DNA of 64,000 nucleotides, taken from the NCBI RefSeq assembly GCF_964355755.1, contig NC_092674.1, positions 25,322,001-25,386,000 of the forward strand, written 5' to 3'. Origin of the DNA: Antedon mediterranea (Eukaryota; Echinodermata; Crinoidea; Comatulida; Antedonidae). Positions 24,625 to 64,000 of the stretch are shown one piece after another. The position numbers were made by a program, and so were the translations under genes. Position 1 is the stretch's first letter. The number at the start of each line of letters is the position of its first letter. The notes under the pieces were generated by a model. The model was not told the DNA's origin. It worked only from the letters and a program-made list of their open reading frames with translations, and ran no database searches.

Positions 24625-27600
24625 ATGAATGAAGCGTTAATCCCGTGTTCCAATTGTGGAAGAACATTTGCACAATCAAGAGTGGTAATATTTCGCGCCG
24701 CTTTTACTTTTATAATTAAAATAGATCTAGGGATATAGACATGTTTAAAATGGTTGGCCTAGTAGTAGTAATAGGCATAGTTTCGTTCCAACTTGGACGC
24801 AACGGATGGGAAAAACGTAAGAAGAGTTGGACCCATCAAGCGACAGTTGGAATATAATAGTAGTTCAAAGCGTCTTGATTGGTCCAATTATTTATGGCGC
24901 GCTTACGTCGTCCATGCGTTGTCTAACAAAAGGGAACAATGGTAGGGTTGCCGCTGTTGCCTAGGTCAGTTTTGACCGTGTTGACATTACCGGATTATCG
25001 CCGTATCAAATTAAAGAAATATCTTGATTTGTAAATAGCAATATTGTAGGCTAGGCCCCTACGCCATTGATCGATTAATTATCATATTTATAGAATCAAG
25101 ATTAATCAGATTGTGCGCATTGCTATTATAGGCCTACTTACATCATTATTAAATAATAATTATAAATAATTGTTTGCAGAGTAAGCATCAGAATATTTGC
25201 AGAAAATCAAGTAAACGGCGGCCGACTTTTGATTCCGGAAAGCAGCGAGCAGAGGGAACAGACATTCCGTTCTCGGTGACGAAGAGAACTCGTCAAAAAG
25301 TTAGTGATAAATGTATTGAAATCTAATATTACCAATTAATCATGAGCTAGTACAGGGCCGTACGCAAGATTTTATTTGGGTGCGCAAGTTATTTAATTGG
25401 GATCAACCATAAGTATACTATATGGGCTGGTGGGTCAAGGGGATCGTCAACGGTTAATTTGGTAAATTTCAATCGGTTAACCGGGCACATAAATACGGAA
25501 AATGTCTTCTACCTTTAAAAATGTTAAGACGTAACAAAAATAATGGTGAACAATATTAAACAAAATAACATTCTTGTATATTGACGTTCTTCTTGATATT
25601 ATGTACGCACCTGTCATCGGCTAATAGTATAATTCTGTAAAATGATCTGTTAGCATTTACGAATTTTACCGTGTGATTCCTGTCTTTATGTACAAAAATA
25701 GTAAATGGCCCTGAAAGTACGTTTTACAACTGTATAATTTCTGTTATTTGTGATAACGAATTAACTATTTGAATAAGCTGTTCCTATTCCATTGGAATCC
25801 TCTAAGGGTATCACAGATAGAGGTTATGGCAAAAGGAAAGAGAGTAGGGATTGGCCGTATGATAAAACTTTTCCCCTTTCGTTTCGGAGGAAAGTGTCCC
25901 ATCAGAGTGTCTCAAAAGGATGGACTGTATTAAGTAAGCCCAAGTATAATTACAGTAAGCAAAATGAGCGGAGATGTGTACGTCGTTGTTATCGTCTTCG
26001 TTCATTACAGAATGGCATTACAAAAACCAACTGGCGTCAACGGCATCAGGAATTCATATCAGCAATACGCAATGCAAGGAAAGCAGTATTAGCGGTTCGT
26101 ACAGGGCAGCCGTTACCCCCACCTCCCCCGCCAGCAGACAATCCAGGTACGCCTTTTTTTGTTTTTGGGTGTTTCTTTCATGAAAATCGGCAGTTACAGA
26201 ATAATATTGCACCAATACACGAGTGGGACAGTATCATATAGGCCTATATAATTATATATAACTTTATTCTCAATCTCAGATTAAAAGTATACATTATTAA
26301 TAATAAATGTATTTTGAATATTAACAAATACAAAATGATTGGAAGTTGTGAATGTGGTTAAGCTGTATAAGCACAAGCTTTAGACGCAAAGCCCCTTTAA
26401 TGAATACATTTTTAAAATAAATAAATAAGTAAATAAATAAATAAAGTAAAAATTTCAGTAAAATGTACCATAATAATTGTAACGATAATAATAACAATAC
26501 TAATAATAGCAATAATGCAATGATGATAATAACAAATCAAATGTCGAGAGAAAATTAATTAACCAGGAACTTATAATTAAAGATAACTGGTGACAAACAT
26601 ATCATGAATTTTATATTTGAACATACCAATACTGGTTAACATATAAAAAATAAGTTCATGTGTTTCATATATATTATGACGTATGTTCTTCGCAGATTAT
26701 ATCACATGTAGATCCTGTTACAGACGTTTCAATGCGCAGGCAGCGGCACGGCATATTCCCGTGTGCACCAATAGAAGAAAAGAACTCGGAGAACCAGTGT
26801 CATTTGCCTTTAGGACTGTTCCAGGAGACTATGGAAGCAAAAACTACTATGCAAAACAGGTAACTGTCAATACACAATTCGACAGCCTATGGGCCTACAT
26901 AGTATACTTGTTTCTTTCGTACTGGAAAAACAATGAAAAGACGTCGTCGATAATGAGATGGTGCACACATTGAGAGAGAGATAACGTATGCGTATAGGCC
27001 TACTGTAGGCCTAAGATTGACCATGTGCATCATACTTTAACCTTTTTATTACTTATTGATAATTGTCCGCCAATCAATAATAATAAAATAATAAACAGTA
27101 TTTATATAGCGCCTAATGGATCACTGACCCCTCTAGGTGCTTTACATAGGACCTTAACTAATGGTAATAAACTATCCCCCGCCGGACACCATTCCGGTAT
27201 TTCTTAGTCGAGGTTTCGGGGATGGAGACAATCAATAATGTGAAAAAAAAAAAAAAAATGTAACAAAGCTTAACTATGCTTAACTAAGGTAAAACTATCC
27301 CCCGCCGGACACCATCCCAATATAAAACACTATGTTTCTTCTTCCTCTATTGGTCATCCCATTCCGAAATCTTGAAGCAGTAAGAAAAATGGCCTATGCT
27401 CAAGACAGTTATGGACACAATAAATTAAAACACGATGAAAGTTCTTTCTAAATGGTCAACTTAACTTTATTAATGCCATAGCTTAAGCGCTTCTCACCGA
27501 TCGATCGACTTCCTACTTCTATGAGAAGAAGAAGTCGTGTCACGTGACATAAGAATAATAAACGGCTGTGATTGTTAAGCTTTGGTTCCCACTAGGACGT

Positions 27601-29395
27601 TCCGCGTAATTTTACCAATCACAAGCTATGGATAATCCAAACTGATGCTTGTCATGGTCAACTCGCTTGTGTTGCACTTGGTCTTTGCCTTGTGTGTAGT
27701 GGGAACCAAGCTTTAGCGCTATCTACCATTCATTGTATCATAGAGATAATATCTCTATGATTGTATTAATACTACACGCCTTTATGTTGGGCCCGGTAGT
27801 GATATTTATTTCCGTCCATAAGTTACTGCTCCTAAAACGTCACAAAACAAACATGAATATTCAAAAGTCATATCCAAAAAGGTGTGATGTAAGAATTGGG
27901 CTAACTACAATTCGCTAATGCAAATGCTTTCTGTCGAGCCGACTGTTTAGTCGAATGGATTAGCCTAGACTATGGACTTTACATGTCGAATTTTGAATAT
28001 CATGAGCAACTTATTTTTAATTTATAGTAAGAGAGAGGGTTAGGTTTTAGTTATATTTAGGAAGTAATTCGGCTATCTTTCACATAAGTGGTCCCCAATT
28101 TATGTACGAAAAAAAATCGCGGCCCCGTAATTCAGTTGTGTGCTTTTCACATAGGGCCTACAGTATAAGCCTAATGCGAAATTTTGTAACTGGAGAGATT
28201 TGAATGAAACCTAACCACAGTGACCCTAACTCATGATTTTGTTTTCACGAAACAGTATGCTAAGACAGTACCGAAGCCATCAGTAAAATCAAGCATTTCG
28301 AGAAGAAACTTAACTGATGTTTCCCATGAAGATGAGAGTGTTTGGCCATTTTCAATGAATGGAAACATGTCATCGAATTCTTCCATATTCCCGTACAACG
28401 GCTGTAGCACTAGTAGTGAAAGACGGTATCAAGGTATATGCATGCACCTACAACTGATTTCGAGTCACACGCAATGGCTGATGTAAAACGGCATTTGAAT
28501 CATACCTGAAATCATACATAATATAGCATGATAATTTAAATTTTCCAGATCAACCTAACGTTTTAACCAATACCGGGTTATCGCCTGTAATGTTATCTGG
28601 TAATCGTTACAAACAGTATCAAAGACCTAGTCCAGGATTCGCTGTAGCACCACGTCTACGTCTGCCAAAGAAACCAGTACCACAACCTCAAGGATCAAGA
28701 TCAATGTCTGGCTCTTCAGTTATTCGTTATAACATACAGCGAGGTGGTCACCCACAGTTAAGGTGATTTTTCAGTAGCTAAACATGTATCTTTAACTGCC
28801 ATGAAACACGTATGGAACGCCGTTACTGCCTTCTTCGGCTCTTTTTACAACTTTCGGCCCTTTACCATTTGGCTCTTTCATCATTTTATACGGCTCTTTT
28901 ACCATTACGTTCGGGCACTTTCACCATTTTATACGGCTCTCTTTCATCATTTCATACGGCTCTTTCATCATTCCATACGGCTCTGGTAAAAGATCCGTAT
29001 ACAATGGCCAAATGGGAAACAAGCCGAACAAGGCAGTAACGGCGTTCCACACACACGTCTGAGACTACAGATGACTACAATAAAATCATTGGTCGTCGAA
29101 AAATCAATAAAAATACATAAAACAACCTGTTTAGTTACCATAAGCATAATAATAAAAGGATGCTGATCAGTATTATCTTTATTTATACAGCCGGTCACTA
29201 CCAACTCCAACAATCACGACGCCCAGGTCACGTTGTAAAATTAGTAAAAACTCTTCTGATGATGCCTTCCAAGAAGGCAGGCCTAAAAGTCGATTACCCG
29301 CTCGGCGCGAAAGACTTTTGTCAGCAAGGGAACCCCACAACGAAGGCCCAAGGATAGTATATACTTTTGGAAATATGCAAGTGTATGAAGACTGA
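24625..29395 (+). CDS. ZC2HC1A: ZC2HC1-family C2HC zinc-finger protein
   Basis: Seven exons join in phase: 24625-24684, 25180-25299, 26011-26146, 26696-26859, 28256-28433, 28549-28762, 29191-29395 (TGA), giving about 358 aa. An in-frame TGA just before the ATG supports the start. Two C2HC zinc fingers are visible: CSNCGRTFAQSRVSKHQNIC at residues 8-27, and YITCRSCYRRFNAQAAARH ending VC in exon 4. Between them are NWRQRHQEFISAIRNARKA and a polyproline run, as in ZC2HC1A/B. The second half is Ser/Pro/Arg-rich and low in complexity. The cellular role is poorly known. Exons 5-7 lie within repeat unit 1 and recur in units 2 and 3. Assignment to paralogue A rather than B or C is tentative. Confidence 0.88.
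27071..27322. mobile_element. Insertion present only in unit 1
   Basis: Units 2 and 3 read GTCCGCCAATCAATATAAAC here, whereas unit 1 has about 245 extra bases. The insert contains TATTTATATAGCGCCTAATG and GTGCTTTACATAGG, a dispersed-repeat type, two copies of CTATCCCCCGCCGGACACCA, and a poly-A run. The internal repeat suggests more than one event. Confidence 0.6.
27575..27716. mobile_element. MITE family 1 copy in unit 1
   Basis: Inverted ends TTAAGCTTTGGTTCCCACTA and TAGTGGGAACCAAGCTTTA. Orthologous copies are at 39114-39234 and 57931-58051, so it predates the array. Confidence 0.75.
28814..29058. mobile_element. Palindromic element with internal ACGGCTCTTT repeats, ZC2HC1 intron 6
   Basis: Inverted ends GGAACGCCGTTACTGCCTT and AAGGCAGTAACGGCGTTCC. 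The interior is several copies, in both orientations, of CATTTTATACGGCTCTTT-like units. The copies in units 2 and 3 (47202-47361 and 59104-59263) have fewer internal repeats, so it varies in length like a minisatellite. Confidence 0.7.
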
Positions 29396-30850
29396 AGGCC
29401 ATTTATAAGTAATTAATATTATTAGAATGTAAGATATATTTTAAAAATCTTTGTCTTTAAACCGCCATGGAAGGACCGAGAGCCTTCCAATATCATTCGT
29501 GCAATATAATAAGATAGGCCTAAGTTTTAAAAAAAATACAACTTATAACCACAATATTTCCCCTGTCGTAATCAGCTCCACAGTCGAGACCAAAGCCAAT
29601 TAAAAGTGATATAAGGCTAATATCATGTTTTGATGAAGAAATGATTACCTATCATTATAAAAGTAAACCAATTCAACCTATTCAATATAAGCGGAAGTAC
29701 ATAATATTAATAATAAATTAAAGCTATAATAAAGATGATAAAATATTGATAGCAATTAGTAGGCCTATGGTAGGGCAAATACATTGTGTGGAAAATTGAC
29801 TAGAGAATTATAAAAAACTGGATTCAAATATATAAACTAATGCATTAAACGGAATGTTTGGGAACATGAACTTAGAAAAAACACATGATCGATACTGGAA
29901 CCGTTAGTTTATCCGTGGTATACTTGTATAAACACATTACCATGTGCATGAATAGAGATAGTTAGTCTGGGCTGCAGACGGAGTTTTGTCTTAATATTAG
30001 TAAAAATATAAATATTTTTGCACATATGGCGTTTCATACGTGTATTACTTGAGTTTGGATACTCCGACAAAAATCGCGGTCGAAATAAAAACAAATAAAT
30101 AAAAAAAAAGACAATAAATACAGACTTGGGGCAAGTCTAAGAGATAGTCTATGCACGGTGTATATCAACGTAAGAACAGACGGCTGGATTAAAAAAACAA
30201 CCCCAAAGACTTAACGTATCTTATGGAGGCTAATTATTCAAAATTTCAAACCGTAGTAAAATCACGAGAGACAGAGCTGCTCAGTCTTAAATGTAAGTAT
30301 ACTTCGATTTTAGAGAAACTTTTATTTATTATGTACTGTAAGTTTATTCAGGTTTCCGTGACAATCCAGCACTTAGTAAAGTGATAATGGGATGATAAAA
30401 TAAATGATTATTTGCTATCTTCTGTAGGCCTACTCGCTGTTGATAGTCATTTAGTTCATTATTTTGTTGTTTGTTATAGGCCTACTATGTGTATTTGTTC
30501 TGAATTACGGTATAATAACAGTATGTGATTAGTAATGTTTAATTGAAGTTGTATTATTTTATTGCTCAAAATACATCAATAACTCGACGTGAGGCCATTT
30601 CAGTTTCAGAAGAACTTTCTTTTATTTCGCCAACTACACGCTAAAGCTTGTTACACAAAGCAATAGCATCATCTACCGTATATTTTTAATAATGAATATC
30701 ATTTGTTAAGAAAAATATATCCAGTATAGCTTGTTACACAAAGCAATAGCATCATCTAACGTATATTTTGAATAATGAATAACATTTGTTAAGAAAAATG
30801 TATCCAGTATAGGCCTAATTATAGCCTCAAAATCATAAGAAGATAGTATC
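29396..30850. other. Unit 1 intergenic region between convergent genes
   Basis: It contains the 3' flanks of ZC2HC1 (+) and the secreted-protein gene (-). A minus-strand polyA signal (TTTATT on +) is at 30621-30626. An 80 bp segment of the latter's 3' region is tandemly duplicated (about 30650-30810). No gene is seen. Confidence 0.5.
30650..30810. repeat. Tandem duplication of 80 bp in 3' region of secreted-protein gene
   Basis: The block from AGCTTGTTACACAAAGCAAT to AAAAATRTATCCAGTATA occurs twice in a row. The same duplication is in unit 2 (about 48930-49100) and unit 3 (about 60840-61010), so it predates the array. Confidence 0.85.
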
Positions 30851-33800
30851 TTATCTTGTGCACACAACGCATGATAACTCGTGGTAATCAACATATGGCG
30901 GACATTTGAGTGACCCACATTTTCCTACGGCAGGATAGAGTAGAAAGCCATTTTTATTCGTTTTAGAATTATCCCTACTTTGAGGAGAGCCGTCGACGCA
31001 AAGGTATTCATGGGCGGCGTTGTGATGAGTACAACCACCCATCAATAAACCCCCGTATTCTTTTGTCCAGCCTTCAGGGCATGTACGTTTAGCTGGGATC
31101 ATTATACTTGCTGATCGACCTTTTGCCAGACACACCGCGCAAGCTGGATCCGTTTGATGTACGTCACGCCACTGAGGGTATTGTTTGAAATTCGTTTCGT
31201 ACTCAGCACCATACACGTTAGCCCTATGCGAGCCGTTCGCCACCATTCGCTCGTCGTATTCAGGTATCTCGGGTAAACACAGTGGGTTTGTACCTGCTCC
31301 AGTGTCCATAAAGTACCCTCCTCCAAGATACCCTAAATATAATTATTCAAAACAGAAAAACAATAAACGTGGTGAACTATTATTTTAAATCAACTCAATG
31401 TGAATCATAATGTAAGGTGTAACAAAATTGTTGGTGGCCAAATCCGACGCAACCATACAATTTCTAGAAATAGGATCTGCTTTTCGTAGTTGAGAATTTT
31501 TAACAAGCCGACACTTGATAATAGGGACTTCACGAAACACGACGGGAAGCCACAGGACGGTGCTCATGAATAATTTAAATTCCGTCATCTTAACTTTTTG
31601 GGGACGATAAAGTTGCCATTTTCCCGTTTACGGAGAACGACTAGAAATAATATACATAACCTTAAATAGACAGTTCAAATTACATCTAAACGTTGAAACT
31701 CTAAATAATATTTTAACTTAAAATTTAATTGTTTAACAAAATAACATTTTTAATTGGTTAAAATGGCTGTGTTAAAACAATAGGCCTACATATTCTGCGA
31801 GGCGTTTGAATGCGAAGCTCTAGCTAGGAAGGTAGGCCTATGCTGTTTCACCAGAGCCAAGCGATTCAGAAGGGCCCACGCCACAAGACGTGGGCCCTTA
31901 CAGAGAGGGGGAGAGATATTGTAACTGTCGGCGCAAGGGTTCGTAACTAATAAAACGGCTATGTTGACATGATTTTACGCTCTACCGAACACAGAATATA
32001 TTCGTCGTCCTCCCCAACCGTCGTGTTTCTTAAAGTCCTTTATGAGGTGGACGAAATTGAAATTCGCTGGTGACGTTCGGGAAATTTAAAGGCAAGGATA
32101 GAAGGAGGAACGATGAAACCGAAAATAAATATACAGAGTGTAAAGAAAAATAATGTTCAAAACAACATTTTATCACAAGTTTTATGTAAATTCATAAATT
32201 ACATTTTGTTCAACTTTTTATATAACTGTACACATATAGGCCTAGTACTATGGGTTTGAATGGTGGGTCTTATGAATAATAATGCTGTTTGTGATTTTAA
32301 AATTAATAATATAGATTTATTTTCACTTACCAACGTATACGATTTCTGAAGAATTTGGGGTGCAGTCCTTCCGACCCCAATGAGTATACTCAACATAATT
32401 GTTAATGTTATTTGTAAAAGCTGTAAATATTAAATTACATTATATTTATGACAGATATTCCTTCATATCATTACTCTTAAAGATATTATTGTCCCCCTAA
32501 AAAATAATTCTTAACAAAATGTTTGTTAAATATCCCATTTTAATGCAACATAATAGTTATCCACTTTGACCAAAAATTAGATCGAAAAAAAAATGTATTT
32601 ACCGGAAGAAAAAAACTGTTTTAAAGCAAAAACAAAATGGTCAAATTGGCTGCCAGCCAATGGGTTTTTGATTGAATTGAACCATTTATTTTGTCATTTT
32701 ATAAGGGAAAAAAAATATTTTTTTTCTATTTGTTTTCTACTCAAGTGATTAACTTTATTAAACTACAACATAACATATTAAAAGTCTGATTTAATTAGTC
32801 TTCATTTTTCATGTTTTTGGGGAAAATACATCTTTAGGGATGTAATTGTGAAATAGAAATATAACTGTAAACTTGTTACCAAATGTAATGCGAAATTTGA
32901 CCAACCACAATCTCGCCCCCACCCCCCCCCCCCAACCCAGTGTGAGAAAAACGGAGAGTCTCCTATCTTTTAACACTTCTAGCCGGTCTGAAAATAATAT
33001 CATTTTTGTTATTTGTAAAGTTATTGATAAACCAATTTTATTGATTTTCAATAGGCATGGTCTGAAAGTATATACCTATCTACACCCAAAAATCACGAAC
33101 GATAACTTGAATACTGTAGGCGCTACCGTGCTAACAAACAAATGAAAGCACTCAGAAACGAAAAGAAAGAGTGAAGTACTTGGCAAAATATATCCACTGA
33201 TTGGGAGTCTTAAAGTAATACGTAAAATAAAATTACATTTTCTCGAGAACTACTTGTCCAAAAAAACTCATTTTGGACAAGAGGCAAGGGTTATAATTTG
33301 TGATTTGTAATCTTAAAACAATTTTTTAATGTACCGGCTTTTTCATACGAGTAGTTTAAAAAAAACTATTTCTTTTCAAATTCACCCGTTTGTTTTAGGC
33401 GTTGCTGTTTAATTGTTATTCAAATTAAACTATTGTTAGTTGATAATTAGTTTTTTTAGTACCAGCCTGTTTCCTTACTTATTTCATTCTGTACATATGT
33501 ATATACTTACAAAACATGCCTATTGATTTTCAGGAAAATTGATATATTGGTCATGTCACAAAAGCTTATCTTCAGTACGATATATTAAATACCACGCATT
33601 CTGTCTTCTTTTAACATGGACATATTCTTTGATATGGACCAAAATTAGTCGATTGGTCAAGAGGTTAAGCTTACTACATGGGTTAAGGCGGAGGCGCCGC
33701 AAATCGGCACAGCTTAAGATACTTCTCGATCATCATTATTCTGGTCAATCTTGATTTTAGAAAGGTCATTGTTGCAATGCCGAAATTGTTTGTATCAAGA

Positions 33801-34810
33801 AATTATGTAAACAAATTATTAACCCCAGCAGGATTTTAACCATGTAAAGCTAATACATAAAGCAAAAAATGTATTGTTAGTGCTATTGTTAGTCAACTGA
33901 AAGGCTTGTTATATAACCATTACAACAAACTCACATACACATGCTCCGAGTGAAATTAGCCTAAATCAAACAGCATTAACACACACACAAATTTATATAT
34001 AGGCCTATTTATATTTTCCCGGAGAAATCTTATGTAGGAAAATTTTACAGTAGGCGGAGGTATGCGCTCTCGGGTGGATTTCTAGTTGTGTAATAGTTTT
34101 GAGAAATTCTCATAGCTTATTAATTTTGTATTAGTTTAGAGCAAATCACGTCACATAACGTATCCACACTTAGAATTTTAAAGAGGTTATGAATTTCAGG
34201 CGTCCAATTGATTGTAAAATAGGATATTCTCAGTGTAGAAATGGTTGATGAGAATAACAAACAGCACGCGGTCTAAAACTCGATAACTAATTGAAAATGA
34301 TATATTTTTTGTAATTATTAAGAGCAATGTCACAATTAGATAATTTTTATTGTCTAAAAAAACAAAAATCAACACACAATACGCTTACCTTTGTCACCGA
34401 AAAGGAAATTCCAGATTACTCCGCCATTGTTTTTAGAGGCCTTTATAATAATAATTATTACAAAATATTATGATTAGTTTAATTCTTCACCATCCATAAG
34501 ATAATTAATTTCAAGTATACATAAATTTGTCTTTTCAAAACTTTAATTAACGACTAACCGTGGCCTTATTACAAAGCTAAATCAAAACAAGAGTTTTCGG
34601 GCTAGAGCAAAACTATTATCATCAGTGCAAGTTAGAGTACTTGGACAAAGTAGATAGTATAAATAGACAAGCGCTGCTTGAGTGGACTTGAATAATTATA
34701 ATAAAAAAGAGTTAATAAAAAGTCTTAATCTTGATTAAAGTTCTTACCTTGGCTTCGGTTAGCAAAATCAGGCAATACCAAAAAATGACGGTACCTTTGA
34801 AGATCTTCAT
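30851..34810 (-). CDS. Secreted short-chain-collagen-type C-terminal domain protein, unit 1
   Basis: Four exons on the minus strand join in phase: 34810-34748, 34440-34389, 32420-32331, 31332-30851 (stop), giving about 228 aa. Exon 1 encodes a signal peptide (MKIFKGTVIFWYCLILLTEA). The mature part starts ASKNNGGVIWNFLFGDKG and continues YTHWGRKDCTPNSSEIVYVG, YLGGGYFMDTGAGTNPLCLP, VYGAEYE, CAVCLAKGRSASIMIPAKRT, CPEGWTKEYGGLLMGG, ending KCPPYVDYHELSCVVCTR. These blocks are those of the C-terminal domain of sponge and other invertebrate 'short-chain collagen C4-like' proteins. Here no Gly-X-Y collagen repeat precedes it. Many cysteines suggest an extracellular disulfide-bonded protein. Its function is unknown. 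It converges with ZC2HC1. Confidence 0.82.
31864..31903. other. GC-rich hairpin
   Basis: GGGCCCACGCC, a short loop, then ACGTGGGCCC can pair over about 9 bp in intron 3 of the unit 1 secreted-protein gene. In units 2 and 3 the right arm is altered (GACACGGG), so pairing is not conserved. Confidence 0.5.
32478..32836. mobile_element. MITE family 3 copy, unit 1
   Basis: Starts TAAAGATATTATTGTCCCCC and ends in an inverted GGGGAAAATACATCTTTA. It matches 17335-17687 over most of its length. It lies between exons 2 and 3 of the secreted-protein gene. In units 2 and 3 the copy has an internal deletion of about 130 bp. Confidence 0.75.
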
Positions 34811-35179
34811 TTTCTTGTTGGTTGTTCTTGGTTTGTACACCTTTAAAGCTGATGTAATGAAAATGTAAAACGTATTCTGTTTTTATAGGCCTACTAACAG
34901 CAGGTGCGCGGTCAGTAATTGGTGCTAGGTGTTGCAAAATAAATAAAATCATATTTCTAATAATATTGAAAATTAGTGTTCAAATAATATTTCTAATTAA
35001 AAACTAATCTGATTTAGTTATTGAATACAAAAATGTGTACTGTTCCAGTTACATAATATAGTGTGTGTTTTGAAAGGTGTCCAAATTTCGTTTTTCCTCG
35101 AATATTTACTATTCAAAATAACAAATCTAAAAATGTCACTCTAATTGGTTGAGTATTACTTTCCCGGAATTACTAGGGT

Positions 35180-35540
35180 CTAGAATACTAGTTCTTTTTC
35201 TGTTGGTACTCTTTTTGATATTCGTCAATGCAGAACAGAATCTTCTTTTCAATCATAATAATATATCCCACTTGTCACCAGAATCTGGAATAACTTACCC
35301 GGTGAAATTCGCAATAAGATATTTCTGTTAGTTAGTTAAACTATCTCAGTACTTATTTTTTAAATAGTTTTGATGATGCTTTAATTGTAAAATGTAATTT
35401 TGTTGTGCTCTTTTCTGGGTTGACCAACTAGCATAGATGTTTAGCACCTGTTTGGTCTTTCCTTGCCGTTTATATTTTGTTTGTTTTTTTCTATGTATGG
35501 CAGAAACTGAATAAAATAAAAAAATAAATAAAATATTTGG
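35180..35540 (+). pseudogene. LINE 3' end relic
   Basis: One frame reads RIWNNLPGEIRNKIFLLVS then a stop, like the LWNSLP...R tail of non-LTR reverse transcriptases. A 3' UTR-like stretch follows, ending in AATAAAATAAAAAAATAAAT. Only the tail is recognisable. The same relic is in unit 2 at about 54006-54362. Confidence 0.55.
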
Positions 35541-36085
35541 GAACATCACTACCATATGGGTACATCACACTTGTTTGTCAAACTAGTTTGATAGTGTATT
35601 AGACGGAGCTTTATAAGCTTAAAATTTTTTTCTTCACAGTGATATACCGTAATATATAAACGGTAATTAAGTAATGTTCATACCATCAATGTCTCATTAA
35701 ATAATACCGTATCATTTACATCGCAGACGTTTGTACTAATTCAGCAACCAGTGATGAATTGATAAAGTTTTGCATAAGAAGCATTTAAAATGTTTTAAAT
35801 AAGCGTGTTTCCACCTGAAATTTCATCAGAACAGAAATTACATAGGATACATAATCACAAAAATGTGATTGAAACATTATAAAAATCTTAAAATGTAAAA
35901 AAAAAACACAAAAAACTGTATTAATAAAATATGTATTTTCTAAAAAGGTGTCGCTCTGCTCTTTGAGATGCGCAAACGCAATTTTTTATGATTTTTGGAA
36001 GGGTTGATTACAGTATGTCAAACCTTTTCTGACTAAGGTTATACCACATCAGATTAACCAGGGAACATTTCACTCATCCCTGTAC

Positions 36086-36118
36086 CAAAGATTGTATAGC
36101 GCCGCTATACAATCTTTG
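36086..36118. other. Perfect 33 bp palindrome
   Basis: CAAAGATTGTATAGCG and its exact reverse complement are separated by a single C. It is unchanged in unit 2 at 54911-54943. Confidence 0.85.
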
Positions 36119-36426
36119 CTTTAACCTTGTTATTTTATTATCTGTACTCAAAGTAACCAGTTTGTTCAAAAACACATTGCTTTCTTCTGTGATGTTTAGA
36201 TCACCCGGTTTCTAGGTACTGTATGTTGTGAATAAACAGTAATTAAAATGTGAATAATTGTAATGATCATGGCATCTGTGATACCGCGAAAACTGCCAAA
36301 GTGGCTATGGATGAATGCAAATTCCAATGAGGCCTTTTTAACTGTTTGCATGTCAGTGTACTGTTATTGAACTGATATAGCCTTAGCCTTGAATATACAA
36401 ACGACTGAACAACCACAACAAATTGC

Positions 36427-40609: not shown

Positions 40610-40766
40610 CCGGCCCTCCTAATGCGAATAACATAAAATGAGCATTAGCAAACTGCAAAACAATTAGTAATCTTAATAATTAGTCTCGTTTAAAAATTTG
40701 TATCATCGTTAACTAAATAGCGTAAGATTTACTTGTTATTAGTTAACTATATTATGACATAAATAA

Positions 40767-46120: not shown

Positions 46121-46136
46121 TTGTCAAGTTTCGAAA

Positions 46137-46527: not shown

Positions 46528-46532
46528 CAGCG

Positions 46533-47150: not shown

Positions 47151-47201
47151 AAGGTGAGTTTCAGTACAAGCATGTACCTTTAACTGTCATGAAACACGTA
47201 T

Positions 47202-52100: not shown

Positions 52101-53648
52101 AAAAAAACTCATTTTGGACAAGAGGCAAGGGTTATAATTTGTGATTTGTAATCTTAAAACAATTTTTTAATGTACCGGCTTTTTCATACGAGCAGTTTAA
52201 AAAACCTATTTCTTTTCAAATTCACCCGTTTGTTTTTGGCGTTGCTGTTCTATTGTTATTCAAATTAAACTATTTTTAGTTGATAATTAGTTTTTTTAGT
52301 ACCAGCCTGTTTCCTTACTTATTTCATTCTGTACATATGTATATACTTACAAAACATGCCTATTGATTTTCAGGAAAATTGATATATTGGTCATGTCACA
52401 AAAGCTTATCTTCAGTACGATATATTAAATACCACGCATTCTGTCTTCTTTTAACATGGACATATTCTTTGATATGGACCAAAATTAGTCGATTGGTCAA
52501 GAGGTTAAGCTTACTACATGGGTTAAGGCGGAGGCGCCGAAAATCGGCATAGCTTAAGATACTCCTCGATCATTATTCTGGTCAATCTTGATTTTAGAAA
52601 GGTCATTGTTGCAATGCCGGAATTGTTTGTATCAAGAAATTATGTAAACAAATTATTAACCCCAGCAGGATTTTAACCATGTAAAGCTAATACATAAAGC
52701 AAAAAATGTATTGTTAGTGCTATTGTTAGTCAACTGAAAGGCTTGTTATATAACCATTACACCAAACTCGCATACACATGCTCTGAGTGAAATTAGCCTA
52801 AATCAAACAGCATTAACACGCACACAAACTTATATATATTTATATTTTCCCGGAGAAATCTTATGTAGGAGAATTTTACAGTAGGCGGAGGTATGCGCTC
52901 TCGGGTGGATTTCTAGTTGTGTAATAGTTTTGAGAAATTCTCATAACTTATTAATGTTGTATTAGTTTAGAGCAAATCACGTCACATAACGTATCCACAC
53001 TTAGAATTTTTAAGAGGTTATGATTTTCAGGCGTCCAAGTGATTGTAAAATAGGATATTCTCAGTGTAGAAATGGTTGATGAGAATAACAAACAGCACGC
53101 GGTCTAAAACTCGATAACTAATTGAAAATGATATATTTTTTGTAATTATTAAGAGCAATGTCACAATTAGATAATTTTTATTGTCTAAAAAAAACAAAAA
53201 TCAACACACAATCACAATACGCTTACCTTTGTCACCGAAAATGAAATTCCAGATTACTCCGTCATTGTTTTTAGAGGCCTTTATAATAATAATTATTACA
53301 AAATATTATGATTAGTTTAATTCTTCACCATCCATAAGATAATTAATTTCAAGTATACATAAATTTGTCTTTTCAAAACTTTAATTAACGACTAACCGTG
53401 GCCTTATTACAAAGCTAAATCAAAACAAGAGTTTTCGGGCTAGAGCAAAACTATTATCATCAGTGCAAGTTAGAGTACTTGGACAAAGTAGATAGTATAA
53501 ATAGACAAGCGCTGCTTGAGTGGACTTGAATAATTATAATAAAAAAGAGTTAATAAAAAGTCTTAATCTTGATTAAATTTCTTACCTTGGCTTCGGTTAG
53601 CAAAATCAGGCAATACCAAAAAATGACGGTACCTTTGAAGATCTTCAT
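49135..53648 (-). CDS. Secreted short-chain-collagen-type C-terminal domain protein, unit 2
   Basis: Four in-phase exons on the minus strand: 53648-53586 (signal peptide), 53278-53227, 50727-50638, 49616-49135 (stop), giving about 228 aa. It has the same domain blocks as the unit 1 gene but about 17 replacements in the last exon's 152 residues after its first Met. They cluster in the N-terminal third: NFKQY becomes ASDQY, ETN-side and IPEYD/KPEYD positions change, HHNAAH becomes HHKATH. All cysteines are kept. The third exon reads AFTTNFNNYAEYTHWGRKDC. No disabling change is seen. Confidence 0.82.
50784..51013. mobile_element. MITE family 3 copy, unit 2, internally deleted
   Basis: Same ends as 32478-32836, but the interior around TTGGCTGCCAGCCAA is missing. 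Confidence 0.7.
51120..52025. other. Rearranged segment in units 2 and 3
   Basis: Bases 51120-51560 have no counterpart in unit 1. They include two copies of TTACTTGGCAAAAAGAATTT. Then 51575-51770 is a diverged duplicate of 33690-33870 (CGCAAATCGGCACAGCTT), and 51789-52022 is the reverse complement of unit 1's 32953-33208. The same arrangement is in unit 3 from 63035. Confidence 0.7.
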
Positions 53649-56600
53649 TTTCTTGTTGGTTCTTGGTTTGTACACCTTTAAAGCTGATGTAATGAAAATG
53701 TAAAACGTATTCTGTTTTTATAGGCCTATTAACAGCAGGTGCGCGGTCAGTAATTGGTGCTAGGTGTTGCAAAATAAATAAAATCATATTTCTAATAATA
53801 TTGAAAATTAGTGTTCAAATAATATTTCTAATTAAAAACTAATCTGATTTAGTTCTTGAATACAAAAATGTGTACTGTTCCAGTTACATAATATAGTGTG
53901 TGTTTTGAAAGGTGTCCAAATTTCGTTTTTCCTCGAATATTTACTATTCAAATCTAAAAATTTCACTCTAATTGGTTGAGTATTACTTTCCCGGAATTAC
54001 TAGGGTCTAGAATACTAGTTCTTTTTCTGTTGGTACTCTTTTTGATATTCGTCGATGCAGAACAGAATCTTCTTTTCAATCATAATAATATATCCCACTT
54101 GTCACCAGAATCTGGAATAACTTACCCGGTGAAATTCGCAACAAGATATTTCTGTTAGTTAGTTAAACTATCTCAGTACTTATTTTTTAAATAGTTTTGA
54201 TGATGCTTTAATTGTAAAATGTAATTTTGTTGTGCTCTTTTCTGGGTTGACCAACTAGCATAGATGTTTAGCACCTGTTTGGTCTTTCCTTGCCGTTTAT
54301 ATTTTGTTTGTTTTTTCTATGTATGGCAGAAACTGAATAAAATAAAAAAATAAATAAAATATTTGGGAACATCACTACCATATGGGTACATCACACTTGT
54401 TTGTCAAACTAGTTTGATAGTGTATTAGACGGAGCTTTATAAGCTTAAAATTTTTTTCTTCACAGTGATATACCGTAATATATAAACGGTAATTAAGTAA
54501 TGTTCATACCATCAATGTCTCATTAAATAATACCGTATCATTTACATCGCAGACGTTTGTACTAATTCAGTAACCAGTGATGAATTGATAAAGTTTTGCA
54601 TAAGAAGCATTTAAAATGTTTTAAATAAGCGTGTTTCCACCTGAAATTTCATCAGAACAGAAATTACATAGGATACATAATCACAAAAATGTGATTGAAA
54701 CATTATAAAAATCTTAAAATGTAAAAAAAAACACAAAAAACTGTATTAATAAAATATGTATTTTCTAAAATGGTGTCGCTCTGCTCTTTGAGATGCGCAA
54801 ACGCAATTTTTTATGATTTTTGGAAGGGTTGATTACAGTATGTCAAACCTTTTCTGACTAAGGTTATACCACATCAGATTAACCATGGAACATTTCACTC
54901 ATCCCTGTACCAAAGATTGTATAGCGCCGCTATACAATCTTTGCTTTAACCTTGTTATTTTATTATCTGTACTCAAAGTAACAAGTTTGTTCAAAAACAC
55001 ATTGCTTTCTTCTGTGATGTTTAGATCACCCGGTTTCTAGGTACTGTATGTTGTGAATAAACAGTAATTAAAATGTGAATAATTGTAATGATCATGGCAT
55101 CTGTGATACCGTGAAAACTGCCAAAGTGGCTATGGATGAATGCAAATTCCAATGAGGCCTTTTTAACTGTTTGCATGTAAGTGTACTGTTATTGAACTGA
55201 TATAGCCTTAGCCTTGAATATACAAACGACTGAACAACCACAACAAATTACCGTAACACCTCGAAAAGAAGCCCGTTTTTTTATTGCTCTTAGGTGGGCT
55301 TCTTTTCGAGATAGGCTTCTTTTCGAAAGTACTTTTGCAAACTGTAGAGGGGGCTTCTTTTCGAAATGAATGCTGTAAATTTTGTGAATTTCTACTACAA
55401 ACAATAATATGACTTTTGAGACATTTTTTCAACCATGAAATTATGTTTAATATACCAATTAAAAAACAATATAAAAAGCAAAAAACAGTCCTATGATTCA
55501 CCGTCAAATACACTCATTTCGTTATCATCGTCATAAATGTATGATAAACACGATCATACATATTAATTATTATCATCAGTCTTCATCAGAAGTATCTGGC
55601 ATTAAATTATCCTACTACAGTAACTCTTAATGTTTGTATTGTTTATTTCTGTTCCTTTGACTCAGTTAATGAACCTATATTGTAGTCTATCTCGAAAAGA
55701 AGCCCATACTATCTTGAAAAGAAGCCCAGGGGCTTCATTTCGAGATGGGCTTCTATTCGAGAGTACTTTTGCAAACTGTAGAGGGGGGGGGGGGGGGCTT
55801 CTTTTCGAGATGGGCTTCTTTTTGAGGTTAAGCCCATGGGCTTCTTTTCGAGGTTTTACGGTATACGAATAATGAACGAATAATTAATGTTTCTCTGAAA
55901 GGCTTACTTGCGAAAAGTAGGTAAGCGGGGCCGTTGTACATCGGTCTTTAATTGGAGAGAGTCTTTAACTTGATGGAGACACTGTATTTGGGAATATCAC
56001 TACCATATTTGGGTACTTTTTTGTCAAACTAGTTTGATAGTGTAGACGGAGCTTTATAAGCTTAGAATTTTGTTTTCTTCATAGTGATACTGAGTTTTTT
56101 TCTAAACGGTAATTATGTAATTGTCATATCATAATGTCTCATTAAATAAAACCGTACTTCACCCGGTTTCTAAGTACTGTATGTTGTGAATAAACACAAT
56201 AATTAAAATTTGAATAATTGTAATAATCGTGGCATCTGTGATACCGTGAAAACTGCCAAGGTAGGTAAGCGGGGTCGCGGTACAGCGGTCTTCAATTGGA
56301 GGGAGTCTTTAACTTGAGGGAGACGATTTATTTTTAGTCGTGTGCAACGCGACATTACAGCTCACTATATCGGTCTGTAGGTCGGTCGGTCAGTAAACAC
56401 TAATTTAAATTTGAGCACGCGACTGCAGCCATGTACAGTATGGCCTTGTATTGTTTAAGCACGTGAAAGAAAACAAAGTCAAGTGGATAGAATGAATGCA
56501 AATACAAATGATGCCTTTTAAACTTTCCGCGTGCCAATATTTATTGAACTTCTATAACCCTAAATTATTTTAAATATACAAACTTCTGAACAACCACAAC

Positions 56601-57277
56601 AAATTTAAGAAAATATTATTGGTTTATTATTTCAACCAATATTTACTTTTGTACCAAAATAACATGCATCATATTTGTTTGGCCAAATTGCAAGAATTGC
56701 GACCCTAGTAATGGCGCCAATTCCGTGAGAAAGTAATTTTAGATTTATTTTGAATAGTAAATATTCGAGGAAAACTAAAATGTGGCCACCTTTCAAAACA
56801 CACACTATATTATGTAACTGGAACAGTACACATTTTCGTATTCAATAACAAAACTAAATCAGATACGTTTTAATTATAAATATTAGAGTAGGCCTATTCA
56901 AACTTCTGACAAATCAGAAAAACAAATTTGTGCGTGTATAGGTGTATTATTTCTACCGATATTAACTTTTGTACCAAAATAACATGCATCATTATTTTTT
57001 GGGCCAAATTCCAAGAACGACGACCCTAGTAATGGCGCCGATTCCGAGAAAGTAATACACAACCAATTGGAGTGAAATTTTAGATTTGATTTGAATAGTA
57101 AATATTTGAGGAAATCAAACATTTGGAATTGGAATTATGGCACAAAGGTGCATGAACCATGTTTTATCTGCCACGTTTCAAAACAAATATTCAAAGTATT
57201 CAATAACAAAACTCAGATACGTTTTAATTATAAATGTTAGAGTAGTATATAAGTAGTATTAGTTTCAATATAATTAT
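53649..57277. other. Right part of unit 2
   Basis: Near-identical to 34811-38460, with the same palindrome (54911-54943), LINE tail, TIR element (55253-55863) and internal duplication. A poly-G run in the TIR element is longer here. No gene seen. Confidence 0.6.
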
Positions 57278-58548
57278 ATTCGACAGGCTATACAGGGCCT
57301 TCAGTATACTTGTTTCTTTCTTAAGCGTGGTTCCCACTAGAACGCAACGCAACGTAAAGCAGCGACGTATCGACGCAAAGTGTTGTATTGCGTAATCACA
57401 AGTGGGAACTGACATGCAACAGTGCTGGAAACATCGCAGGTTTGATTTCACGCAGGCGGGGGCAAACACAATTATTGGAAGGGAATTTTCTTACGTTGCG
57501 TAGGTTGCGTTACGTTGCGTCGCTAGTGGGAACCACGCTTTACTGGAAAAACAATGAAAAGACGTCGTCGATAATGAGGTGGTGCACACATTTGAGAGAG
57601 AGATAACGTATACTGTAGGCATAAAATTGACCATGTGTATCATACTTTTACCTTTTTATTACTTATTGGTAATTGTCCGCCAATCAATATAAACACTGTG
57701 TTTCTTCTTACTCCATTGGTCATCCCATTCCGAAATTTTGAAGCAATAAGAAAAATGGCCTATGCTCAAGACAGTTGTTATGGGCACAATAAATTAAAAT
57801 ACGATGAAAGTTCTTTCTAAATTGGTCAACTTTATTAATGCCATAGCTTGAGCGCCTTTCACCGATCGAGCGACTTTCTATGAGAAGAAGAAGTCGTGTC
57901 ACATAAGAATATAATAAACGGCTCTGATTGTTAAGCTTTGGTTCCCACTAGGGCGTACCGCGTAATTTTACCAATCACAAGCTATGGATAATCCAAACTG
58001 ATGCTTGTCATGGTCAACTCGCTTGCGTTTTCTAGTGGGAACCAAGCTTTAGCGCTATCTGCCATTCATTTTAATACTGCACGCCTTTATATTGGGACCG
58101 GTAGTGATATTTATTTCCGTACACAAGTCCTCCTCATGAAACATCACAAAATAAACATGAATATTCATTAGTCATATCCATATCCAAGGTGTGATGTAAG
58201 AATTGAGCTAACTACAATTCGCTAATGCGAACAATGCTTTCTGTTGAGCCGTCTGTTTTTGTCGAATCGATTAGACAAATCCCATGAGCAACTTATTTTT
58301 ACTTTATGGTGATAATAGTGAGAGAGATTATTTAGAGGGTTAGGTTTTAGTTATATTTAGGAAGTAGTTCGGCTATCTTTCACATAAGTGGTCCCCAACT
58401 TATGTACGAAAAAAAAATCGCGACCCCGTAATTCAACTGTGTTTCACGTACAGTAAGCCTTATGCGAAATTTTGTAACTAGACTGGAGAGATTTGAATGA
58501 AACCTAGCCACAATGACCCTAACTCATGATTTTGTTTTCACGAAACAG

Positions 58549-59628
58549 TATGCTAAGACAGTACCGAAACCATCAGTAAAATCAAGCATTTCGAGAAGAA
58601 ACGTAACTGATGTTTCCCATGAAGATGAGAGTGTTTGGCCATTTTCAACGAATGGAAACATGTCGTCGAATTCTTCCATATTCCCGTACAACGGTTGTAG
58701 CAGTGAAAGACGGTATCAAGGTATATGCATGTACATACAACTGATTTCGAAAAAAGTAAAACGCAATGGCTGATGTAAAACGGAATTTGAATCATAATAT
58801 AAACTTGTTGTATATATAGCATGATAATTTAAATTTTCCAGATCAACCTAACGTTTTAAGCAATACTGGGTTATCGCCTGTAATGTTATCTGGTAATCGT
58901 TACAAACAGTATCAAAGACCTAGTCCAGGATTCGCTGTAGCACCACGTCTGCGTCTGCCAAAGAAACCAGTACCACAACCTAAAGGAGCCAGGTCAATGC
59001 CTGGCTCTTCAATTATTCGTTATAACAGACAGCGAGGTGGTCACCCACAGTTAAGGTGAGTTTCAGTACAAGCATGTACCTTTAACTGTCATGAAACACG
59101 TATAGAACGCCGTTACTTCCTTCTTCGGCTCTTTTACCATTACGTTCGGCACTTTCACCATTTCATACGGCTCTGGTAAAAGAGCCGTATAAAATGATGA
59201 CAGAGCCAAATGGTAAAGGGCCGAATGGTAAACGAGCCGAATAAGGCAGTAACGGCGTTCCATAGACACGTCTGAGACTGCAGATGACCAATAAGCATAA
59301 ACACAATGTCTAAAATAAAATCATTGGTCGTCGAAAAAACAATAAAAATGCATAATTACAACCTGTTTAGTTACCATAGGCATAATATTAAAAGGATGCT
59401 GATGATCAGTATTTTTATTTAAACAGCCGGTCACTGCCAACTCAAACAATCACGACGCCCAGGTCACATTGTAGAACTAGTACAAACTCTTCTGATGGCT
59501 TCCAAGAAGGCAGGCTTCAAAGTCGATTACCCGCTCGGCGCGAAAGGCTTTTGTCAGCAAGGGAACCCCACAACGAAGGTCCAAGGATAGTATATACTTT
59601 TGGAAATATGCAAGTGTATGAAGACTGA
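58549..59628 (+). pseudogene. Orphan ZC2HC1 exons 5-7, unit 3 (open frames)
   Basis: Three exons, 58549-58720, 58842-59055 and 59427-59628 (TGA), keep splice sites and phase and encode a C-terminal part like that of the full gene. The zinc-finger exons 1-4 are absent from this unit. They could only be used by splicing from the upstream gene across the array, or are simply a partial duplicate not yet decayed. Unit 2's counterpart is frameshifted in two exons. Confidence 0.8.
59104..59263. mobile_element. Palindromic ACGGCTCTTT element, unit 3
   Basis: Matches 47202-47361 with one or two differences. Confidence 0.7.
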
Positions 59629-61049
59629 AGGCCATTTATAAGTAATTAATATTATTATAATGTAGATATATTTTTAAAATCTTAGCCTTTAAACCGCCAT
59701 TGGAAGGACCGAGAGCCTTCCAATATCATTCGTGCAATATAATAGGATAGGCTTAAGTTAGAAAAAAAATACATCTTATAACCACAATAATTCCCCTGTC
59801 GTAATCAGCTCCACAGTCGAGACCGAAGCCAATTAAACGTGCTATAAGCCTAAACAAAAATCATGTTTTGATGAAAAAATGATTCATATTGAAAAAAATA
59901 AACCCATTCAACCTATTCAATATCTATTAAAGCGGAAGTAAATAATATAAATTTTATAAATTAAAGCTATAATAAAGATGATAATATATTGAAAGCAATT
60001 AGAGGCCATGGTAGGGCAAATACATTGTGTAGAAAATCGACGAATCTGGATTCAAATAATATATAGACTAAATGCAAGGAATGTTTGGGGAAAAAAATGA
60101 TCGATACTGGAAACCGGTTTACAGTAGTTTATAGTATAAACACATAACCATGTGCATTAATAGAGATAGTCTATGCAGTGTATATCAACGTAAGAACAGA
60201 CGGCTGGATTAAAAAACAACCAAGACGTATCTTATGGAGACTAACCATTCAAAATTTCAAACCGTAGTAAAATCACGAGACAGAGCTGCTCAGTCTTAAA
60301 TGTAAGTATACTTGTTTTAGAGAAACTGTTATTTATTATGATGTAGGCCTACTGTATCTAAGTTTATTCAGGTTTCCGTGACAATCCAGCACTTAGTAAA
60401 GTGATAGTGGGATGTATTTTAAGGCATCTATTTATATTCGGTCGTCATCGAAATTGTTCAACCCAAAAATACAGTATGGTAGTTTGTTCCATTTTAAGCA
60501 ACGGTGTATGGAACGCGAGAAGTGCAATAAATGATTATTTGTTTTCTTCAGGTAGTCGTTGTTAGCGTAACAATAATGGTATATAGAACGCGAAAAATGC
60601 AGTAAAACGATTATTTGATATTTTCTGTACTCGCTGTTGATAGTCATTTAGTTCATTATTTTGTTGTTACAGGCCACTATGCTTATGTGTATTTGTTCTG
60701 AATTATGGTATAATAACAGTATGTGATTAATAATATTTAATTGAAGTTGTATTATTTTATTGTTCAAAATACATCAATAACTAACTCGTGAGGCCATTTC
60801 AGTTTCAGAGGAACTTATTTTTATTTCGCCAACTATACGCTAAAGCTTGTTACACAAAGCAATAGCATCATCTACCGTATATTTTGAATAATGAATATCA
60901 TTTGTTAAGAAAAATGTATCCAGTATAGCTTGTTACACAAAGCAATAACATCATCTAACATATATTTTGAATAATGAATATCATTTGTTAAGAAAAATGT
61001 ATGCAGTATAGGCCTAATTATAGCCTCAAAATCATAAGAAGATAGTATC
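59629..61049. other. Unit 3 intergenic region
   Basis: Counterpart of 47726-49134, nearly identical. No gene seen. Confidence 0.5.
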
Positions 61050-62642
61050 TTATCTTGTGCACACAACGCATGATAACTCGTGGTTATCAACATATGGCGG
61101 ACATTTGAGTGACCCACATTTTCCGACGGCAGGATAGATTACAAAGCCATTTTTATCCATTTTTGAATTATCCCTACTTTGAGGAGAGCCGTCGACGCAA
61201 AGGTATTCATGGGTGGCCTTGTGATGAGTACAACCACCCATTAATAAACCTTCGTACTCCTTGGTCCAGCCTTCAGGGCATGTACGTTTAGCTGGGATCA
61301 TTATACTTGCTGATCGACCTTTTGCTAGACACACTGCGCAAGCTGGATCCGTGTCATGTACGTCATTCCACTGAGGGTATTGATCGGACGCCGTTTGGTA
61401 CTCAGCACCATACACTTCAGCCCTATGAGAGCCGTTCGCCACCATTCGCTCGTCGTATTCAGGTTTCTCGGGTAAACACAGTGGGTTTGTACCAGCTCCA
61501 GTTTGCATAAAGTGCCCTCCTCCAAGATACCCTAAACATTATTATTCAAAACAGTAAAACAATAAACGTGGTAATCATAATGTAAGGTGTAACAAAATTG
61601 TCGGTGCCCAAATCCGACGCAACCATACAATTCCGGCCTAGAAATAGAATCTGCTTTTCATGTTGTAGTTGAGTATTTTTAACAAGCCGACACTTGTTAT
61701 TACTTGATAATAGAGACTTTACGAAACACGATGGGAAGCCACAGGACGGTGCGATCATGAATAATTTATGCATGAGCTTTAACAAAGTAGGCGGAGCTTA
61801 GTGTGAAATTCCGTCGTCTTAACTTTTTGAGGACGATAAAGTTGCCATTTTCCCGTTTACGGAGAACGAATTGAACAAATATACATATAACCTTAAATAT
61901 ACAGTTCAAATTACACTTAAACGTTGAAAAAATATTTGAACTTAAAATTTAATTGTTTAACGAAATAACATTTTTATTGGGTTAAAATGGCTGTGTTAAA
62001 AGCAATACATTCTGCGAGGCGTTTGAATTCGATGCTCCTAGCTAGGAAGGCCTATGCTGTTCCACCAGAGCTAAGCGATTCAGAAGGGCCCACGCCGCAA
62101 GACACGGGAAGGGGAGAGGGATACTGTCGTTCATCGTCTTCGCGCAAGGGCTCGTAACTAATAAAGCGGCTATGTTGACTGTATATGATTTTGCGCTCTA
62201 GCGAACACAAGATATATTCATCGTCCTCCCCTAACCGTCGTTAGTTAAAAGTCCTTTAAAGTGAGGTGGACGACCCAAGGTGAAATGCGCTGGTGACGTT
62301 CGGGAAGTTTAAAGGCAAGGAGAGAGGGAGGGGCGATGAAACCGAAAATAAGTATAAAGTGTAAATAAAAATAATGTTCAAAACAACATTTTATCACAAG
62401 TTTTATGTAAATTCATAAATTACATTTTGTTCAACTTTTTATATATTCTGTACACATATAGGCCTAGTACTATGGGTTTGAATGGTGGATCTTATGAATA
62501 ATAAAGCTGTTTGTGATTTTAAAATTAATAATATTGATTTATTTTCACTTACCAACGTATACGATTTCTGAAGAATTTGGGGTGCAGTCCTTCCGACCCC
62601 AATGAGTATACTCAGCATAATTGTTAAAGTTAGTTGTAAAAG
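61050..62642 (-). CDS. Secreted short-chain-collagen-type C-terminal domain protein, unit 3 (partial)
   Basis: Exons 62642-62553 and 61531-61050 (stop) correspond to exons 3 and 4 of the unit 2 gene, and the last 152 residues are the same as in unit 2. By position, exons 1 and 2, with the signal peptide, should lie about 1.2-1.6 kb beyond the window end. Both splice sites seen are intact. Confidence 0.8.
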
Positions 62643-62697
62643 CTGTAAATATTAAATTACATTATATTTATGACAGATATTCCTTCATATCATTACT

Positions 62698-62928
62698 CTT
62701 AAAGATATTATTGTCCCCCTCAAAAAATAATTCTTAACAAAATGTTTGTTGAATGTCCCATTTTAATGCAACATAATAGTTATCCACTTTGACCAAAAAT
62801 TTGATCGGGAAAAAAATGCATTTACTTGAAAAAAAAACTGGTTTAAAGCAAAATTTTTTTTCTATTTGTTTTCTACTTATTTTAATTAATCTTAATTTTT
62901 CATGTTTTTGGGGACAATACATCTTTAG
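62698..62928. mobile_element. MITE family 3 copy, unit 3
   Basis: Same internally deleted version as 50784-51013. Confidence 0.7.
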
Positions 62929-64000
62929 GGATGTAATTGTGAAATAGAAATATAACTGTAAATTTGTTACCAAATGTAATGCGAAATTTGACCAACCACA
63001 ATCTCGCCCCCACCCCCCAACCCAGTGTGAGAAAAACTAAACAGCTATTACGAGTTAGATGTGAACATCCACTCTGGGAAGAAGACATTCCTTGGATGTA
63101 CCGTAACGTCGATATTGAAGAACTCTTCTTCTTTCAGGGCTCAAATCTTAGTTACTTTAAACGCATTGGAACGATATAGAGTCATATGTTATCCCATCAG
63201 ATCCTACGCAATACACTCTAGGGTAAGAGTTGAAAGACAGAATTTTTGCTGGATGGGGGAACTTGGTGGCCCCCAGCCTCCAGATCTGCTTCTGTAATAA
63301 TTTACCTCCGCCAAGGAGGTATATGTAATCGATCGCGTGTGTTTGTTACTTGGCAAAAAAGAATTTTGCCAAGTATAGTATTTACTTTGTTTGTGTGTAT
63401 GTTTGTTTGTTACTTGGCAAAAAGAATTTTGCCAAGTATAGTATTTTTTTGGTGTAGATAGGTAGCCTATATATTTCAGACCAGTCGACTGGCAGGGGCA
63501 CCGCAAATCGGCACAGCTTCAAGACACTCCTCGACCATTATTCTGGTCAATCTTGATTTTAAAAAGGTCATTTTTTGCAATGGCGGGATTGTTTATATTA
63601 AAAAATTATTTAAACAAAATTATTAACCCCAGCAAGATTTTAACATGTAAAGCTAATACATAAAGCAAAAAAATGTATCTTTCAACATGCTCCCAATCAG
63701 TGGATATATTTTGCCAAGTACTTCACTCCGTTTCTGAGTGCTTTCATTTGTTTGTTTGCACGGTAGCGCCTACAGTATTCAAGTTATCGTTCTGGATTTT
63801 TGGGTGTAGATAGGTACATACTTTCAGACCATGCCTAATGAAAATCAATAAAATTGGTTTATCAATAACTTCACAAATAACAAAAATGATATTATTTTCA
63901 GACCGGCTAGAAGTGTTAAAAGATAGGAGACCATTTTCAAAATCCGGTAAGAAGTCTTAAAGTAATACGTAAAATAAAATTATATTTTCTCGAGAACTAC

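What the first reader, a model, noticed from the sequence alone, without database searches (positions are those of the whole stretch)
26877..64000. Three-unit tandem array that duplicates the 3' half of one gene together with a whole secreted-protein gene
The unit starts inside ZC2HC1 intron 4, 18 bp after exon 4. Units 2 and 3 therefore carry promoterless exons 5-7 next to a complete secreted short-chain-collagen-type gene. The array still runs at the window end, so the copy number is unknown.
Basis: seen in the sequence. Interest (0 to 1): 0.7.

Follow-up and report, generated by a model that had tools for sequence, protein, structure and literature searches.

The report
Five-copy array carrying a gene's tail
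In an unnamed invertebrate genome, a block holding one complete secreted-protein gene and the last three exons of the neighbouring ciliary gene ZC2HC1 occurs five times in a row; it is a clear, well-preserved case of a known kind of duplication, with no sign of a new mechanism.

Summary
The array runs 32 kb past the window and has five units (extended window coordinates 26877-95918), not three. The first duplication joined the end of an 11.6-kb block to ZC2HC1 intron 4, 18 bp after exon 4, with about 1 bp of microhomology. The two first copies then diverged (about 12% in non-coding DNA). An unequal crossover inside the secreted gene (U1 32146-32383) made a hybrid middle unit, which was amplified. 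Hence unit 1 is divergent only in its left half and unit 5 only in its right half (P about 5e-108). ZC2HC1 exons 5-7 carry no zinc finger. The extra copies are open in U3 and U4 and broken in U2 (frameshifts plus a young BEL/Pao retroelement in exon 6) and U5. The secreted gene has four exons, 228 aa and a signal-like N-terminus. It has no Gly-X-Y tract and only a weak NC1-like C-terminal domain, so it is at most a relative of spongin short-chain collagens. It is intact in U1, U2 and U4, lacks its start in U3 and has a stop in U5. The same logic is known from human RCCX. Read depth and RNA could not be tested.

The parts
24625..26859 (+). ZC2HC1-type gene exons 1-4, outside the array: 24625-24684, 25180-25299, about 26011-26146 (acceptor uncertain), 26696-26859; they encode both C2HC zinc fingers
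   Evidence: open spliced frame of 358 aa with two zf-C2HC_2 matches, E 5.4e-15
26877..38460 (.). Unit 1 (11.6 kb); left part (to about 32.15 kb) divergent, right part nearly identical to units 2-4
28256..29395 (+). ZC2HC1 exons 5-7 of unit 1 (28256-28433, 28549-28762, 29191-29395), joined in frame to exon 4
30852..34810 (-). Secreted NC1-like gene of unit 1, intact: exons 34748-34810 (signal peptide), 34389-34440, 32331-32420, 30852-31332 (stop follows); 228 aa
32146..32383 (.). Switch point of the mosaic: inferred unequal crossover inside the secreted gene (intron 3/exon 3)
   Evidence: diagnostic sites: U1 differs from U2-U4 at 331 sites left versus 15 right, U5 at 17 left versus 192 right, Fisher P 4.9e-108
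38461..57277 (.). Unit 2, including the BEL/Pao insertion
38504..38720 (.). MITE-like element just inside the junction, present in units 2-5 and absent from unit 1 (its right end is cut in unit 5)
   Evidence: family found on most large contigs; 40 of 1965 candidates scored
39732..47725 (+). ZC2HC1 exons 5-7 of unit 2, broken: 1-bp insertion in exon 6, BEL element in exon 6, 1-bp deletion in exon 7
40219..46528 (-). BEL/Pao LTR retroelement, LTRs 40219-40610 and 46137-46528 (99.7% alike), 4-bp target duplication AGCG
   Evidence: Peptidase_A17 E 6e-32
49136..53648 (-). Secreted gene of unit 2, intact: 53586-53648, 53227-53278, 50638-50727, 49136-49616
57278..64000 (.). Unit 3, cut by the window end (continues to 69112)
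58549..59628 (+). ZC2HC1 exons 5-7 of unit 3, open frame and splice sites intact, no exons 1-4 in front
61051..64000 (-). Secreted gene of unit 3, 3' part; its first exon lies beyond the window (65476-65505) and has lost the start codon by a 33-bp deletion

Best explanation
A gene-scale tandem array made in steps. (1) An illegitimate tandem duplication of an 11.6-kb block, with ends in ZC2HC1 intron 4 and upstream of the secreted gene, and about 1 bp of microhomology, left a second copy of exons 5-7 without exons 1-4 (shown by the junction; the repair type is inferred). (2) The copies diverged, about 0.09-0.12 per non-coding site (shown). [quoted passage not shown] (4) Further exchange raised the middle unit to three near-identical copies, U2-U4 (inferred). 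ZC2HC1 most likely uses only unit 1's exons 5-7; the other copies are passengers, two of four already broken. What the array can change is the dose and sequence of the secreted protein, with intact genes in U1, U2 and U4 (function inferred).
For: Five places, one junction sequence, MITE only in U2-U5. Complementary mosaic with one switch point, P 4.9e-108. No other copy of exon 5 in the genome. Exons 1-4 carry both zinc fingers and exon 4 occurs once at full identity. Exons 5-7 broken in U2 and U5. Secreted gene intact in three of five; it is one of about 35 related loci that lie in clusters on C5, C6, C7, C9 and C11 (41 matching stretches).
Against: The common ancestor of the U2-U5 exons was still fully open after the long divergence: about 4 frameshifting indels would be expected in a neutral copy and none is seen (P about 0.02). 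That hints at constraint, gene conversion, or divergence as alleles before the duplication. The substitution count (27 observed, 26.8 expected if one copy is neutral and the other frozen) does not settle it. No transcripts or reads were available. In U5 the right end (about 37-38.4 kb equivalent) is again 97-99% like U1/U2, so at least one further exchange or conversion is needed.
Confidence: 0.85

Rival explanations
1. The downstream exon 5-7 sets are used: exon 4 splices over 30-40 kb to U3 or U4 as alternative 3' ends of ZC2HC1.
For: U3 and U4 copies keep frame, splice sites and stop; all coding indels between them and unit 1 are multiples of three; dN 0.037 versus dS 0.085; no frameshift where about 4 would be expected.
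Against: U2 and U5 copies are broken; U3 and U4 are young copies (1 difference in 585), so their intactness says little; substitutions fit one neutral copy; convergent secreted genes lie between.
Confidence: 0.08
2. The extra units are an assembly artefact made from haplotypes or false duplication.
For: U2 and U3 are about 99.3% alike and differ mainly by the retroelement and small indels, as two alleles might; reads could not be checked.
Against: A diploid gives two haplotypes, but four distinct unit types are present; all four junctions are identical and carry a MITE absent from unit 1; the first-versus-middle divergence (about 10%) is a clean half-unit mosaic.
Confidence: 0.06
3. The left-half divergence arose between alleles before the duplication, by unequal exchange between two very different haplotypes, not between tandem copies afterwards. 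(A variant of the best explanation that changes step 2 only.)
For: Explains why the ancestral downstream exons 5-7 show no decay; gives the same U1/U5 mosaic.
Against: Needs non-coding allelic divergence near 9-12% with many indels; heterozygosity of this genome is unknown.
Confidence: 0.2

Closest known systems
Human RCCX module (STK19-C4-CYP21-TNX), PMC8362596
   Same: Tandem unit with ends inside flanking genes, so extra units carry complete genes plus a truncated neighbour (TNXA, STK19B); unequal crossing over makes chimeras and changes copy number; a retroelement (HERV-K(C4)) sits in only some units.
   Different: Unrelated genes and origin; here five units, one flanking gene truncated (3' exons only), and the recombinant gene is a secreted NC1-like gene.
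Partial gene duplicates (Katju 2012, PMC3449122)
   Same: [quoted passage not shown] reported as a large share of new duplicates in C. elegans and Drosophila.
   Different: Here the partial copy rides with a complete second gene and has been re-amplified.
Spongin short-chain collagens / 'short-chain collagen C4-like' (PMC5395295; upregulated in Exaiptasia pedal disc, PMC6626399)
   Same: Signal-like N-terminus, cysteine-rich, a C-terminal stretch similar to the collagen IV NC1 core, no HSQ motif.
   Different: No Gly-X-Y tract in the gene; no Pfam or PDB sequence match; the similarity is short.
Unequal-crossover tandem arrays with divergent end units (general knowledge)
   Same: Middle units homogeneous, end units divergent on their outer sides.
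   Different: Only five units, so the single exchange point can be read directly.

Membership tests
Tandem segmental duplication with partial-gene passenger (RCCX-like) | Two or more head-to-tail units with the same junction | tested here: met
   Five units, four identical junctions
Tandem segmental duplication with partial-gene passenger (RCCX-like) | Unit edge inside a gene, giving truncated copies of that gene | tested here: met
   Edge 18 bp into ZC2HC1 intron 4; exon 5 found only in the five units, exon 4 once at full identity
Tandem segmental duplication with partial-gene passenger (RCCX-like) | Evidence of unequal crossing over or chimeric genes | tested here: met
   Half-unit mosaic with switch inside the secreted gene
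Tandem segmental duplication with partial-gene passenger (RCCX-like) | Copy number varies among individuals | not testable with these tools
   One assembly, no reads
Spongin short-chain collagen | Short collagenous Gly-X-Y domain | tested here: not met
   No run of four or more Gly-X-Y triplets in the array; the few three-triplet runs are low-complexity or outside the gene model; the four-exon model closes without one
Spongin short-chain collagen | NC1 domain related to collagen IV, without HSQ motif | tested here: inconclusive
   29-column profile match to this genome's collagen IV NC1, probability 79%, tiny database; no Pfam C4 or PDB match
Spongin short-chain collagen | Signal peptide / secretion | tested here: inconclusive
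   Hydrophobic N-terminus MKIFKGTVIFWYCLILLTEAK, conserved in paralogues; no signal predictor was run
ZC2HC1 | Two C2HC zinc fingers (zf-C2HC_2) | tested here: met
   Two stretches, E 5.4e-15, above cut-off; naming as ZC2HC1 also rests on recalled similarity to human ZC2HC1A
BEL/Pao LTR retroelement | LTRs, Pao-type peptidase, RT, integrase | tested here: met
   LTR pair and target duplication; Peptidase_A17 and Integrase_H2C2 above cut-off, RVT_1 and rve just below, pieces searched apart

The most novel reading that the evidence does not exclude
The downstream exon 5-7 sets are functional alternative 3' ends of a ciliary zinc-finger gene, so one promoter and one set of zinc fingers would serve several tails spread along an array, each sharing its block with a secreted-protein gene.
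Probability: 0.07. Interest if true: 0.65.

Novelty: new member of a known kind. Interest (0 to 1): 0.3.

Why it matters
It is a compact natural example in which the origin junction, one unequal-crossover point, a chimeric gene and the decay of passenger exons can all be read from one assembly. If the downstream exons proved to be spliced, it would show how a tandem duplication can add alternative 3' ends to a gene. Annotators should not call the extra exon sets separate ZC2HC1 genes.

Tried and rejected
Looked for a collagen tract in the secreted gene and its introns: none. Looked for a Pfam or PDB match of the secreted domain, single sequence and profile: none. Looked for a human-like C-terminal motif in ZC2HC1 exon 7: none. 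First read 33206 as the boundary of the mosaic; diagnostic sites moved it to 32146-32383, and the stretch 32958-33207 turned out to be a small element lying in opposite orientation in unit 1. Considered selection on the downstream exons: two tests disagree. No structure prediction was run; the secreted protein is split by introns and only near-identical window copies could have been aligned.

Full report
Observation. The window lies at contig C5:25322001-25386000 of a 354-Mb animal genome in 18 contigs. Self-comparison shows long direct repeats from about 27 kb to the window end. I fetched the next 50 kb and repeated the comparison on window plus extension. There are five units: U1 26877-38460, U2 38461-57277, U3 57278-69112, U4 69113-84569 and U5 84570-95918, in coordinates that continue past 64000. 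A search of the whole genome with ZC2HC1 exon 5 finds these five places only.

Junction. The unit edge is exact. Positions 38461-38503 match 26877-26918 (84%), followed in U2-U5 by a 217-bp MITE-like element that unit 1 lacks (cut at its right end in U5), then by the main match. That element belongs to a family found on most large contigs of the genome. The right flank runs on past 95918 where U1-U4 jump to the next unit. Left and right ends share about one base, so the first duplication was not driven by a repeat (inference: end joining or a replication-based error).

Genes. ZC2HC1 spans 24625-29395 with seven exons in one open frame (the acceptor of exon 3 is not fixed). Both C2HC zinc fingers are in exons 1-4, so the duplicated exons 5-7 hold only the tail. 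The full-identity exon 4 exists once. The secreted gene lies on the minus strand and has four exons: signal peptide, a short conserved exon found by comparison with paralogues, an exon with the motif YTHWGRKDC, and a cysteine-rich last exon. Phases fit and the product is 228 aa. No collagen tract exists in it. The last exon shares a short stretch with the NC1 domain of this genome's own collagen IV (collagen IV found). [quoted passage not shown] The genome has 41 matching stretches, about 35 loci, in clusters on C5, C6, C7, C9 and C11.

State of each copy. ZC2HC1 exons 5-7: open in U1, U3 and U4; broken in U2 (1-bp insertion and BEL/Pao element in exon 6, 1-bp deletion in exon 7) and U5 (frameshift in exon 5, exon 6 acceptor deleted). 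The BEL/Pao element has LTRs 99.7% alike and a 4-bp target duplication, so it is young. Secreted gene: intact in U1, U2 and U4; no start codon in U3 (33-bp deletion); TGA in U5. U2 and U3 are identical over 621 coding bases of exons 2-4.

History. Window-by-window identities show that U1 differs from all others in its left half but not its right, and U5 the reverse. At sites where U2-U4 agree, U1 differs at 331 of 4360 left of 32160 and 15 of 3771 right of it; U5 at 17 and 192 (Fisher P 4.9e-108; the small opposite-orientation element at 32930-33215 was left out). The switch lies at 32146-32383, in intron 3/exon 3 of the secreted gene. One unequal crossover between two diverged tandem copies gives exactly this: a hybrid middle unit, later amplified. 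The middle secreted genes are therefore chimeras, with early exons from the first copy and the last exon from the second. The right end of U5 is again similar to the others, which needs one more exchange or conversion.

Selection on the passenger exons. Between U1 and U3, exons 5-7 have dN 0.037 and dS 0.085; non-coding divergence is 0.125 over the left half and 0.094 near the exons. If one copy had been frozen and the other neutral, 26.8 differences would be expected and 27 are seen. About four frameshifting indels would be expected and none is seen (P about 0.02). The result is suggestive at most. Recent copies decay freely in U2 and U5.

Artefact. Reads are not available. The identical junctions, the MITE shared by U2-U5 only, the deep and complementary divergence of the two end units, and private insertions argue for a real array. 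One false copy (U2 versus U3) cannot be excluded.

Comparison. Partial duplicates are common among new gene duplicates (PMC3449122). The human RCCX locus has the same logic: unit edges inside flanking genes, truncated passengers, chimeras by unequal crossover, and a retroelement in some units only (PMC8362596). This finding is a new member of that kind. ZC2HC1A is a reported ciliary gene in other animals (PMC11317154), and genes annotated as short-chain collagen C4 are upregulated in the sea anemone pedal disc (PMC6626399), but no function was tested here.

Noticed in passing
22533-24684: PACRG (minus strand; ParcG E 1e-68) and ZC2HC1 (plus strand) lie head to head with about 1 kb between them. 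ZC2HC1A is reported as ciliary (PMC11317154) and PACRG is ciliary by general knowledge, so a shared promoter is possible.
   Followed up: partly
32958-33207: A small element in unit 1 lies in the opposite orientation to its counterpart in units 2-4 (for example 51783-52024), 94-95% identical.
   Followed up: partly
L010-L013, about 100.5-113 kb in extended coordinates (C5:25422500-25435000): Just beyond the array is another tandem set: units of about 1.5 kb with a repeated short lectin-like exon, next to a SUEL lectin domain (E 2e-22) and a twice-repeated 150-aa exon without Pfam match.
   Followed up: partly
G000:C9:25444519-25524606, C7:21912576-21980441, C5:24197710-24239640: Further clusters of the same secreted NC1-like family, about 35 loci in the genome, some with stops; none checked for passenger exons.
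   Followed up: no
L011, 71465-72368 in extended coordinates: Unit 4 carries a 0.9-kb insertion with inverted ends (80% alike) directly after the ZC2HC1 exon 7 stop.
   Followed up: no
27077-27319: A high-copy repeat (about 240 bp, 95-98% identical copies on most large contigs) sits in ZC2HC1 intron 4 of unit 1 and is absent from units 2-5.
   Followed up: no
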